DNA of 64,000 nucleotides from Armatimonadota bacterium (GTDB lineage: Bacteria; Armatimonadota; HRBIN16): contig BPGT01000001.1 in assembly GCA_026003175.1 (NCBI GenBank), positions 1,154,839-1,218,838 on the forward strand. The letters are read 5' to 3'. Shown here one piece after another: positions 31,250 to 37,715 of this stretch (positions are counted from its first letter, which is position 1; every line of letters starts with the position of its first letter). Both the position numbers and the translations under genes were made by a program. The notes below the pieces were generated by a model. The model was given only the letters and a program-made list of their open reading frames with translations, had not been told where the DNA came from and did no database searches.

Positions 31250-32221
31250 CTACGCCTCGAGGGGAAGAGCCATCTGTTCTGCCGAGACAGCACGCGATAG
31301 AGCATATAGCTGTTCGCGCAGGGAATTTTCTACAAATGTTGGAAAAGCGTAAGCCTCTTTGTTTATCAGTGCGATGTTACCTTCTGGGGAGCCTTCGCCG
31401 ATGTATACGAAAAGAGGTGTCCAGCGGTTCCTCAGGTTTTCGATGGCGCCGCTCCATGTGCCTCCCTTATCCTTCTCGCAAGCAACGACCAGAGCGAACT
31501 CCGCCAGAGCATAGATCATCTTGTTGCGCCCCATAGCGTTGCCCGCGGTGAAACCGCTTTGCGGGTGATAGGGCGAAACGAGACACAGTTTGTCCGAAAG
31601 CAGATACTCACGCAAGGCAGGTAAGGTGGCTGTCCTCGCCAGATCTGCTGCCAAAACACCCACACAGGTGCCCTCTTCCTCCAGCGCCCCCAGCATAGCG
31701 GCTCTGTCCACGCCCTTTGCTCCACCCGAAATAACTGTCCACGACTGCTGAGCGCATCGGTTTGCTATGCGACGAGCAACCTCCAGAAGATGCTCGCCGG
31801 CGTATCGGGAGCCGACGATAGCCAGCCCTCCCTGTTGTAGCAGCGCGTGGTTGCCAAAACCGTACAGTAACACGGGAGCTTGTTTGCGTAGCTTCTCGCG
31901 TAGCACCGCAGGATAATCCCTATCTTCCCACGAGGCCACCCACATCCCTGCGTTGCCCCACTTCTCAACCCACAACGCAATCTGCGCGCCGCGATCCAGT
32001 AATATCCTCACACGCTCTGCCGGAAGTCCTGTCTGAGCCTCTCCTTCAAGAAGGAGCAGATATATATCAGGTGATAACAATACTTCCGGGGAATAGCCTT
32101 TCTCGCCGAGCCAGTCCACCAATTTCACATACTCTGATTGCGACAGGGGTTGTACCGGCTCGCTGCCTGTGTGTGCACAGAGCAGTAAGGCAACCTGTGT
32201 GTTGGGTGAAAGGGCGTACAT
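31250..32221 (-). CDS. Divergent DprA/Smf-like DNA-processing protein
   Basis: 323 residues. The Rossmann core is that of DprA: GGLAIVGSRYAGEHLLEVAR, WTVISGGAKGVDRAAMLGAL, a nucleotide-binding LVSPYHPQSGFTAGNAMGRN and LAEFALVVACEKDKGGTWSG. Canonical DprA has VSGLARGID and SGSLITA; here these are VISGGAKGVD and GGTWSGAIE, and the winged-helix tail is missing. DprA loads RecA on incoming single-stranded DNA in transformation, and SLOG/DprA-like proteins also occur in defence. GGAGGATAATGGAAC precedes the ATG, and the site overlaps the stop of the RecQ gene six bases upstream, implying tight pairing. Confidence 0.8.
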   Translation of the reverse strand: MYALSPNTQVALLLCAHTGSEPVQPLSQSEYVKLVDWLGEKGYSPEVLLSPDIYLLLLEGEAQTGLPAERVRILLDRGAQIALWVEKWGNAGMWVASWEDRDYPAVLREKLRKQAPVLLYGFGNHALLQQGGLAIVGSRYAGEHLLEVARRIANRCAQQSWTVISGGAKGVDRAAMLGALEEEGTCVGVLAADLARTATLPALREYLLSDKLCLVSPYHPQSGFTAGNAMGRNKMIYALAEFALVVACEKDKGGTWSGAIENLRNRWTPLFVYIGEGSPEGNIALINKEAYAFPTFVENSLREQLYALSRAVSAEQMALPLEA

Positions 32222-32227
32222 GTTCCA

Positions 32228-34330
32228 TTATCCTCCGCGCAGAACCTGCTTTGCCAGCGCAACAGGAAATACTTTACCACTTCCTGCCTGACGTAGTAGC
32301 GTTGTAATCACGGTCAGTGTCCACCCTGAGTCTACCACATCGTCCACCAGAAAAACAGGTTGGGATATATCCCGCCACGGTTGTACCTCGAACGCACCCT
32401 CCAGATTGCGCACCTGATGGAAGCTGTTCTGCATCTCCTTTTGGGGACGGGTTTCGCGCACTTTGCGCACGCAGGGCACAAAGGGTAGCCCCAACCTCTG
32501 GGCAAAGCGCAGGGCAAAGTCAGCTACCAGGCGGGGATGTCTGAGAGAGGGGACACAGGTCACCCACTGCGGAGCAGGTTGAGGTTGCCATCGTTTGACC
32601 ATCTCCACCATCCCCTCGACCAGTTCATCACTGTAGAAGCCGTCTGTATATTTTCCTTGCTTGACCAGTATGCCCCATCCTGCATCTCCCCACAGGCATA
32701 GGGCACGTCCTTCCTCGTGGCGCAAGGTCTCTGGTATTTTGCCTTGCCCACCCGAGATGAGTAGTCCCTCTTTTGCTGGCCACATTTTGCGCGGTTCTAT
32801 GGATATCTCAGAACGTCGCAGGAACCGCACAGCCTCTATCACCGTTTCGCGCTCTACGGAAGGCGATATGATTGGATGACCAGTACAGCAGGCACATTTG
32901 CCGCAGGGCTGGGCATGAGGGTCGTCCAGAGCCTGCTGTAGGAAGAGCATGAGGCACTGCGTGCTGTGCATGTATTGCTGCATCTGCTCCTGCTCGGCAC
33001 GACGCAGGGTGGTAAGCCTCTGGACGCGTTCCATATCGGGCTGGTATGGTACTGGGGCAAGCACGTATTTATTGCCCATCTGCAGAATGGGCGATGGAGT
33101 CTCAGAAGACAGCAGCCGCAGCACTTTGTCTATCTGCTGGCGTGATAGGTTGACGTAGCGTTCCATCTCCGCGACGCTCAAGCCGCTGCCGTGTTGCTGC
33201 AGGGCGTGCAGGATAGCATCCGTATGTGCTTGTGGTGGAAACGCCGTGCGGATGAAGTAATCCACTATCTCATCATCCTCTTCTCCACCCAGCAACACAA
33301 TCATCGCATTGTCTAGCGACCTGCCAGCTCTGCCAATTTGCTGGTAGTAGTGTACGACTGAGCCGGGGCGTTGAAAGTGTACGACAAAACCGAGATCAGG
33401 CTTGTCAAATCCCATGCCCAGCGCCACGGTTGCCACCAGCGCTTTCACATCGTTGCGCAATAACTTCTGCTCCAAATCTTCGCGCTCGGTGTTGTCCAAA
33501 TCGGCATGATAGGCGTATACCTGCCATCCTTTCATCTGTAACCAGTTAGCGACACGTTCCGAGTCGGCAACGGTCAGGGTGTAGATAATGCCACTACCGG
33601 GCAATTCGTGCATGTGGTTGGCGAGCCATGCCATACGTTCCGCCTGCGAGGGCAAGATGATGTTCTGCAGCCGCAGGCTACGCCGTGCTAAATTGCCTCT
33701 GTGGATGCTTAAATCTTCTCCCAGCTGTTGCCGAATGTCTTCCACCACCCTGTTGTTGGCGGTCGCAGTGGTAGCGAGCACAGGCACATTGCGCGGTAGC
33801 AGGCGCAACACCCTGACAATGCGTCGATAGTCTGGACGAAAATCATGTCCCCAATCTGAAATGCAGTGTGCTTCGTCAACGATGAGCATCAAGATACGCG
33901 AAGCAACACGCTGCAGAATGTTTCCGTAAAAATCAGCGTTGGCAAGACGCTCTGGACTAATGAGCAGCAGCTCCACCTCATCTGCACGCAGGCACTCCTC
34001 GATGGCATGCCATTGTTCAGTATTGGCGGAGTGGATAGTCACAGCGCGGACGCCCATGCGCGTTGCCATCTCGATCTGGTTGCGCATGAGCGAAAGCAAG
34101 GGGGAAATCAACAGCGATAGACCTTTATTGCTGTTTTGCTCGCGGAGTAGCTTCGCCGCGATGAAATACACAATGCTTTTGCCCCAGCCTGTTCGCTGCA
34201 CCAGAAGCAACCGTTTGCGGTGTGCTGCCAGAGCCTCTATCGCTTCCCATTGACCATCGCGAAAAGCGGCTGAGAAGTCTTGTAGTCCTGCCCGCAACAG
34301 AGCCAGCGCACGCGTGTGTAATGTACTCAA
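32228..34330 (-). CDS. recQ: RecQ-type helicase fused to a phosphoribosyltransferase domain
   Basis: 700 residues from a TTG start preceded by AAGGTGGCGGTAG. Helicase motifs are QRTGWGKS (Walker A, K51), DEAHCISDWGHDFRP (DEAH 152-155), LATTATANNRV and YYQQIGRAGRSLDNA. A zinc-binding part (CGKCACC) and a winged-helix-like region of about 355-420 follow. The last ~200 residues hold a type I PRTase domain with the PRPP loop VFLVDDVVDSGWTL at about 659-672, as in ComFC-like proteins. Walker A replaces the usual GGGKS with TGWGKS. RecQ unwinds DNA 3'-5'; the PRTase role is unknown. The gene follows topA by 60 bases and pairs with the DprA-like gene. Confidence 0.9.
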   Translation of the reverse strand: MSTLHTRALALLRAGLQDFSAAFRDGQWEAIEALAAHRKRLLLVQRTGWGKSIVYFIAAKLLREQNSNKGLSLLISPLLSLMRNQIEMATRMGVRAVTIHSANTEQWHAIEECLRADEVELLLISPERLANADFYGNILQRVASRILMLIVDEAHCISDWGHDFRPDYRRIVRVLRLLPRNVPVLATTATANNRVVEDIRQQLGEDLSIHRGNLARRSLRLQNIILPSQAERMAWLANHMHELPGSGIIYTLTVADSERVANWLQMKGWQVYAYHADLDNTEREDLEQKLLRNDVKALVATVALGMGFDKPDLGFVVHFQRPGSVVHYYQQIGRAGRSLDNAMIVLLGGEEDDEIVDYFIRTAFPPQAHTDAILHALQQHGSGLSVAEMERYVNLSRQQIDKVLRLLSSETPSPILQMGNKYVLAPVPYQPDMERVQRLTTLRRAEQEQMQQYMHSTQCLMLFLQQALDDPHAQPCGKCACCTGHPIISPSVERETVIEAVRFLRRSEISIEPRKMWPAKEGLLISGGQGKIPETLRHEEGRALCLWGDAGWGILVKQGKYTDGFYSDELVEGMVEMVKRWQPQPAPQWVTCVPSLRHPRLVADFALRFAQRLGLPFVPCVRKVRETRPQKEMQNSFHQVRNLEGAFEVQPWRDISQPVFLVDDVVDSGWTLTVITTLLRQAGSGKVFPVALAKQVLRGG

Positions 34331-34390: not shown

Positions 34391-36682
34391 CTACGAGGCT
34401 ATCGCCTGCGCAGACCCAGCCTCTTCACGATAGTCACATTCTTTGTTAGAGCAGGTAACGGTCACCTGCTTGCGTCCATTTTGCTTCTCCACCAGCAGCG
34501 AACCGCACTTGGGGCAAGTTCTGCCCACTGGCTTGTCCCACAGCGTGAAGTCGCATTCAGGATAGCGGTTACAGCTGTAAAACACTTTGCCCCGCATCTT
34601 GCCCTTGCGCACTTTGCGCTGCACGATTTGTCCCTGATGGCAAACCGGGCAGGTGATGCCTGTACCTTTCTCCAGCGGCTTGCGTGCCTTGCACTGCTCG
34701 TTGGTGCAAGCCAGATACTCGCCGTACCTGCCCCAGCGGATGACCATTGGCGAGCCGCACTTCTCGCACACCTCATCCGATGGCTGGTCGGGCGGGGCGG
34801 GTTCGCCGCTGCGGGTGACCTTCACGATGGTCTTACATTCGGGATAGCGCGAGCAGCCGAGGAACTTGCCGTAGCGTCCCTCGCGGAGCAGCATCTTGGC
34901 GCCGCAGTTGGGGCAGGTGTAGTCGGTCTCCTTCGGCTCGATGCGCACGAACTCACTGCTCTTTTCGGTCTCTGCCAGTCGCTGCGCGAAGGGCTCGTAA
35001 AAGGCACGCAGTACCTCTGTCCATTCCTGCTTGCCTTCCTCGATATCATCCAGCTGTTGCTCCACGCCGGCGGTGAACTGCACGTCCAGGATGTCCGGGA
35101 AGTGCTTCACCAGATAGTCGGTGACGGCGATGCCCAGCGGTGTGGGGTAAAATCGCTTGTCCTTCAACTCCACATAACCGCGCTCCACGATGGTGGAAAG
35201 GATGGTAGCGTAGGTGCTGGGCCTGCCGATGCCTTTCTCTTCCAACGCCTTTACCAGCGTGGCTTCGGTGTAACGGGGCAGTGGCTCGGTGAAGTGCTGT
35301 TCCGGCAGGAGCCGGAGCAGGGTCAGGACTTGTCCCTCCATCATGGGGGGCAGGGGCGGGCGTTCCTCGTCGCTCAGCTCGCCGTTGTCCTTGCCCTCCA
35401 CATAGACGCGCATGAAGCCATCAAACTTCACGCTGGAGCCTGTGGCACGGAAGGTGTAGCGCCCCGCCTGAATATCCACGGTGACCACGTCCAGCACCGC
35501 AGGTGACATCTGGCTGGCAAGAAACCTCTGCCAGATGAGCCGATACAGCTCATACTGTTCCCTGGAAAGGTGGTTTTTGACCGAATCGGGTGTGCGTGCC
35601 ACGGAGGTGGGACGGATGGCTTCGTGCGCATCCTGAGCACTCCTGCGCGAACGGTACTGAGGTGGCTTTTCTGGCGCATAGCGCTCCCCAAACTCCCTGA
35701 CGATGTACTCTCGCGCCTGTGCCTGCGCCTCGTCGGCAACGCGGGTGGAATCGGTGCGCATGTAGGTAATCAAACCAACCGAGCCCTGTTCACCCAGATC
35801 CACGCCTTCATAAAGCTGCTGGGCAATCTGCATGGTGCGTTTGGCACTGAAGCCCAGCTTGCGCGCCGCCTCCTGCTGTAGGGTGCTGGTGATGAAAGGT
35901 GGTGAGGGGTTGCGTTTGCGCTCACTGCGCTTGATCTTCTGCACCACATATTGCGCGCCTTCCAGCTCCTGCAGCACCGCGTGCGCTTCCTGCTCGTTGT
36001 GCAGTTCCAGCTTCTCGCCGTCGCGCAGGCGCAGGGTGGCATCGAAAGCGTTCGCTTCGGTGTCGGGTGTGAGGCGGGCGGTAATTGTCCAGTACTCTTC
36101 TGGCACGAAAGCTTCAATCTCACGCTCGCGCTCCACCACCAGCCTGACCGCCACCGACTGCACGCGCCCCGCGCTGAGGGTGTTGCGGTTCGCCTTCTTC
36201 CACAGCAGCGGACTCAGGCTGTAACCCACGATACGGTCCAGGATGCGTCGAGCCTGCTGGGCGTTGACACGGTTCATATCGATATCACGCGGGTTCTGCA
36301 GAGCCTGTTGCACCGCCTGACGGGTTATCTCGTTGAACTCGATGCGGCGGGCATGGTGCAGGTTTAGGGCTTCCTTAAGGTGCCAGGCTATCGCTTCGCC
36401 CTCGCGGTCGGGGTCAGAGGCAAGGTACACTTCCGACGCCTTCTCCGCCGCCTCCTGGAGCTTTTTCAGCACCTCCTGCCGCTCGGGCAGGGTGATGTAA
36501 GTCGGTGTGAAGCCGTTCTGCACATCCACGCCGAAATCCTTATCCGGCAGGTCGCGCACATGCCCCATCGAGGCTTCCACCTGATACTGGTCACCCAGAA
36601 AGTTTTTGAGCGTCTTCGTCTTCGCGGGCGACTCGACGATGATTAACGCTTTTGCCTTGTCCGTGCTTTCCCGTCTACTCAT
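34391..36682 (-). CDS. topA: DNA topoisomerase I
   Basis: 763 residues. The TOPRIM domain has [18 protein letters not shown] and [13 protein letters not shown]. The active-site tyrosine is Y307 in [26 protein letters not shown] and [16 protein letters not shown] are also conserved. Four C-terminal zinc ribbons of the C-x2-C...C-x4/5-C type follow ([34 protein letters not shown]), typical of type IA enzymes that relax negative supercoils. The start overlaps the era stop by eight bases, so era-topA-recQ-dprA form one minus-strand operon. Confidence 0.97.
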
Positions 36683-37574
36683 AGCCCAGCTCCCTTAGTG
36701 CTCGCGGGTCGCGTCGCCAATCGGGTATCACCTTCACCACCAGCTCCAGATACACCTTGCTGCCCAGAAACAGTTCCAGCTGTTTGCGTGCCTCCTGCCC
36801 AATCTGCTTGAGCATACTACCGCCTTTGCCAATCACGATGGATTTGTGGTTCTCTCGCTCGACGATGATCTCCGCACGGATATACTGTACCCCGTTCTCA
36901 CGCTCTTCCCAGTCGGTGACGCGCACGGCGATGCTATAAGGCATCTCCTCGCGCAGGTGGCTCATCGCCTGCTCGCGCACAATCTCCGCCGCCCAGTCCT
37001 GCCGCGACTGGTCACTGCGGATGTCCACCGGGTAGAAGAAGGGCGATTCGGGCATCGCCAGCAGAATCTCCTCACGCAGGCGGTACACCGCCTTTGGGTC
37101 TTTCAGCGCGGAGAGGGAGATATGCCTCTGGGCATTCGGTAACAGCGCGGCGTACGCCTGCATCGCTTGCTCCGGGTACTTCGCGGCGTCCAGCTTGTTG
37201 CCCACAATCCATATCGGCGCGTCTACCCCTTGTAATCGGTTTGCCAGGTCTTCATCTTCAGGGGTAGGGGGATGACGCAGGTCCACCACCCACAGCACCA
37301 GATTAATATCCTCCAGCGCGGTGTCTATCTGTTCTATCATAAACTGTCCCAAGCGGTCTTTAGGCTGGTGCCAGCCGGGCGTGTCCACGAACACCACCTG
37401 CCGGTTGCCCTCGGTGTAGATGCCACGCACACCGCGTCGCGTGGTCTGAGGGCGCGAGGTGATGGGCGCGACCTTCACCCCTAGCATGACGTTGAGTAAG
37501 GTGGACTTGCCCACGTTTGGCTTGCCTACTATCGCCACGAAACCGCAATGGGTGGGTATCTGTTCCCCGTTCAT
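36675..37574 (-). CDS. era: GTPase Era
   Basis: 299 residues from the ATG at 37574. G1 is [13 protein letters not shown], the switch carries [14 protein letters not shown]3 is FVDTPGWHQ and G4 is VGNKLD. The KH domain follows with [20 protein letters not shown], and [20 protein letters not shown]. Era binds the 3' end of 16S rRNA in small-subunit assembly. AAGGAGTATCGCGA precedes the chosen start. A longer reading to 37673 runs into a palindromic repeat and is rejected. It heads the operon with topA. Confidence 0.96.
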
Positions 37575-37591
37575 TCGCGATACTCCTTGAC

Positions 37592-37660
37592 CTACCCCTC
37601 TGTTCCCTTCCCTGAGAGGGAAGGAGGGATCTGCCCCTGTCCTCGCAGGAGAGAGGTTCA
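37592..37660. repeat. Palindromic CCCTCTCC/GGAGAGGG repeat, family C
   Basis: TTCCCTTCCCTGAGAGGGAA followed by GGAGG is a hairpin, and CCTCGCAGGAGAGAGGTT matches the end of the copy at 8721-8820. It lies just upstream of era. Confidence 0.5.
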
Positions 37661-37715
37661 CCACTCCCAGCACGCAGGTAGTTGTACCAGCAAGCGTGGG
37701 ATGCTGTCAAGATAG

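What the first reader, a model, noticed from the sequence alone, without database searches (positions are those of the whole stretch)
31250..34330. RecQ-phosphoribosyltransferase fusion paired with a divergent DprA
The RecQ gene ends in a PRPP-binding domain (VDDVVDSGWT), and six bases later begins a DprA-like protein with altered nucleotide loops (VISGGAKGVD, GGTWSG) and no winged helix. ComFC-type PRTases and DprA both act in natural transformation, and DprA/SLOG-fold proteins together with PRTases have been proposed in conflict systems by comparative genomics. The pair may be a DNA-uptake or anti-invader module placed behind era-topA. dprA beside topA is itself common, so a modified housekeeping role is the alternative.
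Basis: partly seen in the sequence, partly recalled or inferred. Interest (0 to 1): 0.55.

Follow-up and report, generated by a model that had tools for sequence, protein, structure and literature searches.

The report
RqlHI operon with clamp-like partner tail
The two genes are a copy of a known bacterial pair in which a DprA-like protein restrains a DNA-damaging helicase, and following it up showed that such partner proteins usually end in a short sequence resembling the tag that docks proteins onto the DNA-replication clamp.

Summary
In E. coli the PRTase domain makes RqlH genotoxic and RqlI binds and restrains it (PMC4670107). In the genus rqlH occurs in 6 of 10 genomes, always directly after topA, and presence changes at least three times on the TopA tree. 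The genome has a separate canonical DprA but no canonical RecQ, so a DNA-uptake role is unlikely.

Two things look new to me. First, DprA-like partners of these operons lack the usual C-terminal winged helix or extend past it, and mostly end in a sliding-clamp-binding-like motif: 27 of 34, against 0 of 21 canonical DprAs and 1 of 20 other DprA-like proteins without a PRTase neighbour. The window copy ends QMALPL. Second, the same phylum holds other helicase-PRTase-DprA operons, including one form in which the RecQ motifs are destroyed but the PRTase loop is mostly intact. Clamp docking is an inference from sequence, not shown.

The parts
32228..34330 (-). rqlH / psyrT: RecQ-family helicase with C-terminal phosphoribosyltransferase domain, 700 aa
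   Evidence: PADLOC PsyrT PDLC03928 964.3 bits, residues 5-696 on profile 5-685 of 689
33290..34267 (-). RecQ-type helicase core (about residues 22-347) with TGWGKS, DEAH and QxGRAGR motifs
   Evidence: TIGR00614 261.7 bits over its cut-off, PF00270, PF00271; TGWGKS and DEAH in 17 of 17 aligned rows
32876..32968 (-). four-cysteine RecQ zinc-binding segment (residues 455-485)
   Evidence: PF16124 17.7 bits, under its cut-off; cysteines kept in 15 of 17 rows
32231..32863 (-). PRTase domain (residues 490-700)
   Evidence: model mean pLDDT 64.8; ComF, PurF and ShosT best by structure
32315..32359 (-). PRPP-binding loop region (residues 658-672, VDDVVDSGWT)
   Evidence: DD in 17 of 17 rows, DxVDS in 16 of 17; the matching stretch of E. 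coli RqlH is needed for toxicity
31250..32221 (-). rqlI / psyrA: DprA-like SLOG protein, short form without C-terminal HTH, 323 aa
   Evidence: PADLOC PsyrA PDLC03927 361.7 bits, residues 4-300 on profile 3-300 of 398
31442..31954 (-). DprA/SLOG core of RqlI (residues 90-260)
   Evidence: PF02481 123 bits
31259..31276 (-). C-terminal sliding-clamp-binding-like motif QMALPL (residues 316-321 of 323)
   Evidence: Q-[MPLI]-A-L-P kept in 5 of 5 genus RqlI although residues 281-320 are only 38-48% identical to the window copy in the four congeners; enrichment
34391..36682 (-). topA, fixed upstream neighbour (context)
   Evidence: directly upstream of rqlH in 6 of 6 genus genomes with rqlH
36675..37673 (-). 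era, overlaps topA by 8 bases (context)

Best explanation
An RqlH-RqlI (PsyrT-PsyrA) operon behind era-topA. RqlH is a RecQ-type helicase carrying a PRPP-binding PRTase domain that harms DNA metabolism when unrestrained. RqlI, a DprA-like SLOG protein, binds the PRTase domain and keeps it off. I propose in addition that the C-terminal QMALPL tail of RqlI docks it on the replication clamp, so that the restrained PRTase sits at replication forks and is released when an invader or damage upsets the fork. Shown here: identity, architecture, gene order, intact motifs, patchy distribution at one site, and a clamp-like tail that goes with PRTase-linked DprAs. Shown by others in E. coli: PRTase-dependent genotoxicity, rescue by RqlI, interaction through the PRTase domain. 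Inferred: that this holds here, clamp docking, the trigger, and a defence benefit.
For: PADLOC PsyrT 964 and PsyrA 362 bits; best others DpdF 298 and ShosA 87. Conserved signatures. rqlH-then-rqlI order, as in all paired strains of PMC4670107. An RqlI is adjacent in 7 of 7 full-length RqlH genomes where bases downstream are readable; in the other 3 of 10 the contig ends within 121 bases. E. coli experiments: PMC4670107 abstract, passages, sections 11, 13, 15. Patchy presence. Clamp-like tail: 27 of 34 operon-type DprA/RqlI proteins in the last 15 residues, against a shuffle mean of 1.28 (maximum 6 of 34 in 2000 shuffles), 0 of 21 canonical DprAs and 1 of 20 other DprA-like proteins with no PRTase or RecQ hit nearby. 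The consensus Q-L-x-L-F, usually C-terminal, is from PMC4549789 and PMC9690074 (passages).
Against: No toxicity, interaction, clamp-binding or phage data for this copy. The motif patterns were written after I had seen the operon-type tails, and the rows are related (5 from this genus, 6 each from two other groups), so 27 of 34 is not 34 independent events. Seven of 34 lack the motif, among them Acinetobacter and the E. coli plasmid form at its C-terminus. A DprA of G044 (L114) has the motif (QLRLFP) without a PRTase hit in the 7 kb read. The strict pattern also occurs inside 4 of 20 canonical DprAs, before the winged helix, so the internal QPELF of E. coli RqlI is weak evidence. In E. coli, RqlI 1-320 rescues, and by my numbering that cut falls at the Q of QPELF, so the motif is not needed for restraint. 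PsyrTA gave no protection in PMC12409345. RqlH occurs without RqlI in 55.3% of strains in PMC4670107.
Confidence: 0.75

Rival explanations
1. RqlHI without clamp docking: the known pair as in E. coli, and the tail motif is a disordered end with another role or none.
For: Everything for RqlHI above. Clamp motifs are short and degenerate (PMC9690074 passage). The E. coli truncation result.
Against: The motif tracks PRTase-linked DprAs and not other DprAs, and is kept in 5 of 5 genus members within an otherwise diverged tail.
Confidence: 0.4
2. Housekeeping RecQ: RqlH replaces RecQ in repair, with RqlI as recombination mediator.
For: No canonical RecQ over the TIGR01389 cut-off in the genome; next matches are 56 and 46 bits. 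Placed after two core genes.
Against: 4 of 10 genus genomes have no match to the PsyrT profile at E <= 1e-60, a search that picks up RecQ-like proteins in other families. The PRTase loop is strictly conserved.
Confidence: 0.12
3. DNA-uptake module acting on incoming single-stranded DNA.
For: PRTase fold closest to H. pylori ComF; DprA homology.
Against: Separate canonical DprA and ComF-like protein; comEC in two frames; absent from 4 of 10 congeners; DprA and ComF cut-offs not met.
Confidence: 0.03

Closest known systems
RqlH-RqlI of E. coli (PMC4670107)
   Same: RecQ-like helicase with C-terminal PRTase followed by a DprA-like gene; same motifs; RqlH 698 aa there, 700 here
   Different: RqlI here is 323 aa, has no C-terminal HTH and ends in QMALPL; the E. 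coli form (400 aa) has an HTH and an internal QPELF in the linker
PsyrT-PsyrA of Pseudomonas syringae (seen only through PMC4670107 and PMC9122126)
   Same: Best PADLOC match of both proteins
   Different: PsyrA model has 398 positions; this copy covers 3-300
ShosT-ShosA and the P2-phage DprA-PRTase defence system (PMC9122126, passages)
   Same: PRTase with DprA-like partner; ShosT structures among the best fold matches
   Different: ShosA model 87 bits against 362 for PsyrA; no RecQ part in the DprA-PRTase pair as described in the passage
SocAB, a toxin-antitoxin system of Caulobacter whose toxin binds the clamp (PMC9690074 passage)
   Same: A toxin-antitoxin-type system that uses a clamp-binding motif
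   Different: There the toxin carries the motif and blocks the clamp; here the restraining partner carries it; no sequence relation tested

Membership tests
RqlHI / PsyrTA | RecQ-type helicase with intact ATPase motifs | tested here: met
   TIGR00614 over its cut-off; motifs
RqlHI / PsyrTA | C-terminal PRTase domain with PRPP loop on the same polypeptide | tested here: met
   PsyrT profile 5-685 of 689; loop; fold; PF00156 alone is under its cut-off
RqlHI / PsyrTA | DprA-like partner gene directly downstream of rqlH | tested here: met
   PsyrA 361.7 bits; 6-base gap
RqlHI / PsyrTA | C-terminal HTH on RqlI (optional, not defining: dispensable in E. coli and absent from 7 of 12 aligned RqlI rows) | tested here: not met
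RqlHI / PsyrTA | RqlH genotoxic alone, rescued by RqlI, proteins interact | not testable with these tools
   shown for E. coli
Sliding-clamp-binding proteins | Q-L-x-L-F-like motif, usually at the C-terminus | tested here: met
   QMALPL at residues 316-321 of 323, a degenerate match without the final F; likeness to the QLSLPL of Hda is recalled
Sliding-clamp-binding proteins | binds DnaN | not testable with these tools
   -
Canonical RecQ (TIGR01389) | score over cut-off, HRDC domain | tested here: not met
   298.4 against 640.2 bits; no HRDC match at E <= 0.1
Canonical DprA (TIGR00732) | score over cut-off and C-terminal winged helix | tested here: not met
   91.2 against 191.15 bits; no sequence left for it
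ComF / ComFC (TIGR00201) | score over cut-off | tested here: not met
   22.2 against 233.55 bits
ShosTA | ShosA as best model | tested here: not met
   87.1 against 361.7 bits for PsyrA

The most novel reading that the evidence does not exclude
RqlHI, ShosTA-like pairs and the other helicase-PRTase-DprA operons found here are one class: a PRTase effector held by a DprA-like protein that docks on the replication clamp through a C-terminal QxxLF/QxxLPL tail. The helicase is an exchangeable front part, and in one family it is a dead RecQ kept only as a scaffold or sensor.
Probability: 0.4. Interest if true: 0.65.

Novelty: new variant of a known kind. Interest (0 to 1): 0.42.

Why it matters
How RqlHI-type systems sense trouble is open in the work read here. 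A clamp-docking tail on the restraining partner would place them at replication forks and give a simple, cheap test (peptide binding to DnaN, tail deletion). The dead-helicase form would separate the role of the PRTase from that of the helicase in a natural experiment.

Tried and rejected
DNA uptake: rejected on the separate canonical DprA and ComF-like protein and the patchy distribution. Decayed DprA: rejected because the loops are family signatures. New helicase-SLOG combination: rejected.

Viral carriage: no pattern match in viral contigs; only partial DprA-like matches in phages with P0002 (5 records, none covering 80%). With a ShosA-type DprA as query most listed matches looked like ordinary DprA; I opened none. 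Genome contigs gave 2 loci.

RqlI structure: mean pLDDT 47.4, not used. PRTase model: used for fold class only. Promoter/terminator scan: chance level. Paper searches: PsyrTA with mechanism and DprA, 0 papers; ShosT/ShosTA, no mechanism paper in the listings; RecQ with PRTase domain, DprA, SLOG, one paper; DprA or RqlI with clamp terms, 39 papers, 12 listed, no listed title on a DprA-clamp link; I looked for DprA or clamp terms inside three of these works and found no DprA-clamp interaction. Absence from print is claimed only for these searches of an open-licence library. Sberro 2013 and Ordonez 2012 are not held.

I first tried to extend the RqlI tail test to Acidobacteria (one search failed). 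The phylum and name of the organism were not established.

Full report
What is there. On the minus strand the window carries era (37673-36675), topA (36682-34391), a 700-aa RecQ-like helicase with a C-terminal PRTase domain (34330-32228) and a 323-aa DprA-like protein (32221-31250). Six bases separate the last two genes; era and topA overlap by 8 bases and 60 bases separate topA from the helicase gene. One transcript is plausible, not shown.

What it is. PADLOC names the helicase PsyrT (964.3 bits) and the DprA-like protein PsyrA (361.7 bits, residues 4-300 on 3-300 of 398). It is not a canonical RecQ (298 against 640 bits) nor a canonical DprA (91 against 191 bits). The PRTase domain is under the Pfam cut-off, but its model (pLDDT 64.8) matches H. 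pylori ComF (Z 12.2), PurF (10.6) and ShosT with PRPP (10.3) best. In 17 RqlH rows TGWGKS, DEAH and the DD of the PRPP loop occur in 17; in 12 RqlI rows GSR and RNKxIY occur in 12. The C-terminal HTH is absent in 7 of 12 RqlI rows, replaced by a longer tail in 4, and one row is a truncated frame.

What is known. PMC4670107 (abstract, passages, sections 11, 13, 15): E. coli RqlH is genotoxic without RqlI, through the PRTase domain and its PRPP loop; the helicase part and RqlI keep the PRTase in check; RqlI co-precipitates with RqlH only when the PRTase is present; RqlI 1-320 still rescues; rqlH always lies upstream of rqlI when both are present, and rqlH alone is found in 55.3% of strains. The word 'clamp' does not occur in that text. 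PMC9122126 (passages) shows a DprA-PRTase pair protecting against T7 and lambda. PMC12409345 (passages) saw no protection from a PsyrTA in E. coli. PMC5512222 (passages) had placed the helicase-PRTase-DprA system among conflict systems.

Distribution. Of 61 genomes (own, 9 same genus, 51 same phylum), 36 match the PsyrT profile at E <= 1e-60, mostly over the helicase part only. Full-length RqlH (over 780 bits) is in 10 of 61: 6 of 10 in the genus and 4 of 51 outside. A PsyrA-like partner is adjacent in 7 of these 10; in the other three the contig ends within 121 bases. In the genus rqlH lies directly after topA in 6 of 6; the four genomes without it have other genes there, with only 0.6 and 1.8 kb readable in G006 and G003. 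On a TopA tree presence needs 4 changes, at least 3 forced by well-supported branches. The genus copies of RqlH form one clade, and G036 groups with a Sinorhizobium plasmid copy. Of 13 plasmid records with an RqlH match I opened 6: three have an annotated DprA downstream, two of them inside a type I restriction operon and a BREX cluster.

Own genome. A canonical 360-aa DprA with a winged-helix-like tail, a ComF-like protein, no canonical RecQ, and comEC in two overlapping frames.

Other operons of this type. Searches showed long RecQ frames beside DprA-like frames in three genomes of the phylum. A profile of their PRTase ends (alignment A3) searched in 291 phylum genomes gave 178 with a match, most of them ordinary ComF-like frames; I opened 24 of the highest-scoring loci with long frames, two stand-alone PRTase loci and one DprA locus (27 loci). 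In 23 of the 26 PRTase loci a DprA-like gene follows downstream (in G062 865 bases away); G203 ends at a contig end, and none was found in G225 and G208. The forms are: long RecQ-RQC-PRTase proteins of 931-1105 aa, with HTH_40 in 3 of 4 scanned, and a ShosA-type DprA in the two scanned (205 and 208 bits); one 792-aa protein (G275); 662-688-aa proteins of family f31 that match PsyrT full-length (743 bits for G200); stand-alone PRTases; and, in six genomes of family f20, a degenerate RecQ. In these six, motifs I, II, III and VI are destroyed while the PRPP loop reads VDDIFDSGAT in 5 and VDGIFDSGAT in 1. The degenerate part is still recognisable as RecQ (71-198 bits), open in all six, and 37-62% identical between pairs, so it is retained as protein. 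On a tree of helicase cores RqlH and the f31 form group together (100/99), the long form lies among canonical RecQ, and the degenerate form is a long-branched clade. So the same PRTase-DprA arrangement occurs with at least two RecQ backgrounds; whether by two fusions or by loss of the PRTase from canonical RecQs is not decided.

The tail. The short partners end in sequences such as HQLSLFDS, TQLSLFDS, SQLKLFDN, EQLELF, RQLALF, EQPSLF and, in the window genus, Q-[MPLI]-A-L-P-[LI]. This resembles the clamp-binding consensus Q-L-x-L-F, usually C-terminal (PMC4549789, PMC9690074, passages). With a relaxed pattern (Q..[LIM][FLPWI] in the last 15 residues) 27 of 34 partners match, with a strict one (Q[LMIP].[LM][FLP]) 19 of 34; shuffling the last 40 residues gives means of 1.28 and 0.23 (maxima 6 and 3 in 2000). 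Canonical DprAs of the phylum give 0 of 21. With the same patterns, 20 other DprA-like proteins, most of them short, none with a PRTase or RecQ hit in the stretch read, give 1 of 20 and 0 of 20; two of these 20 (G037, G010:C135) look like ordinary winged-helix DprAs by their tails. Other long frames in the loci give 4 of 234. One of the 34 (G044) has the tail without a PRTase hit nearby. Both E. coli RqlI forms carry QPELF in the linker before the HTH, but 4 of 20 canonical DprAs also have the strict pattern somewhere before the winged helix, so an internal match is weak. The patterns were fixed after I had seen the operon-type tails, and the rows fall into roughly a dozen lineages by my judgement. 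I take the association as real and clamp binding as likely but unproven.

A small curiosity. Between G000 and G004 rqlH is 94.5% identical in DNA (topA 89.7%), rqlI 74.5%, with the drop about 100 bases inside rqlI: a recent exchange that cut through the operon.

Verdict. The window pair is a known system in a short-RqlI form. The follow-up gives two testable leads: a clamp-like tail on PRTase-linked DprAs, and a dead-helicase form of the module.

Noticed in passing
L097 2186-5169, L098, L101, L103, L106, L110 (family f20): RecQ-derived frames with helicase motifs I, II, III and VI destroyed, fused to a PRTase with a mostly intact loop and followed by a ShosA-type DprA, in six genomes.
   Followed up: partly
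L068 4645-8458, L069, L070, L091-L093, L095, L096: Canonical-type RecQ with RQC, often HTH_40, and a ComF/ShosT-like PRTase, followed by a short DprA ending in a QLSLF-like motif; not covered full-length by the PADLOC PsyrT model.
   Followed up: partly
window 31250-34330 against locus L053 (G004): Mosaic: rqlH 94.5% identical in DNA but rqlI 74.5%, break about 100 bases inside rqlI, unrelated sequence beyond.
   Followed up: partly
L061 2570-4352 (G000 contig C5): comEC of the window's genome reads as two overlapping frames (441 and 185 aa), as if frameshifted or misassembled.
   Followed up: no
L060 7362-10111 (G000 contig C1): A third, degenerate DprA-like protein (302 aa) before what reads like a DNA methyltransferase (TSPPY) and a restriction-enzyme-like ORF; names are my reading; similar DprA-like frames in G001, G003 and G004.
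   Followed up: no
PADLOC models PDLC02866 and PDLC02869: Two models labelled DpdF match the PRTase end of RqlH, which suggests RqlH pieces in that model set.
   Followed up: no
L064 3938-6819 (Sinorhizobium pSymB): RqlI frame truncated to 268 aa after an RqlH frame without the zinc cysteines.
   Followed up: no
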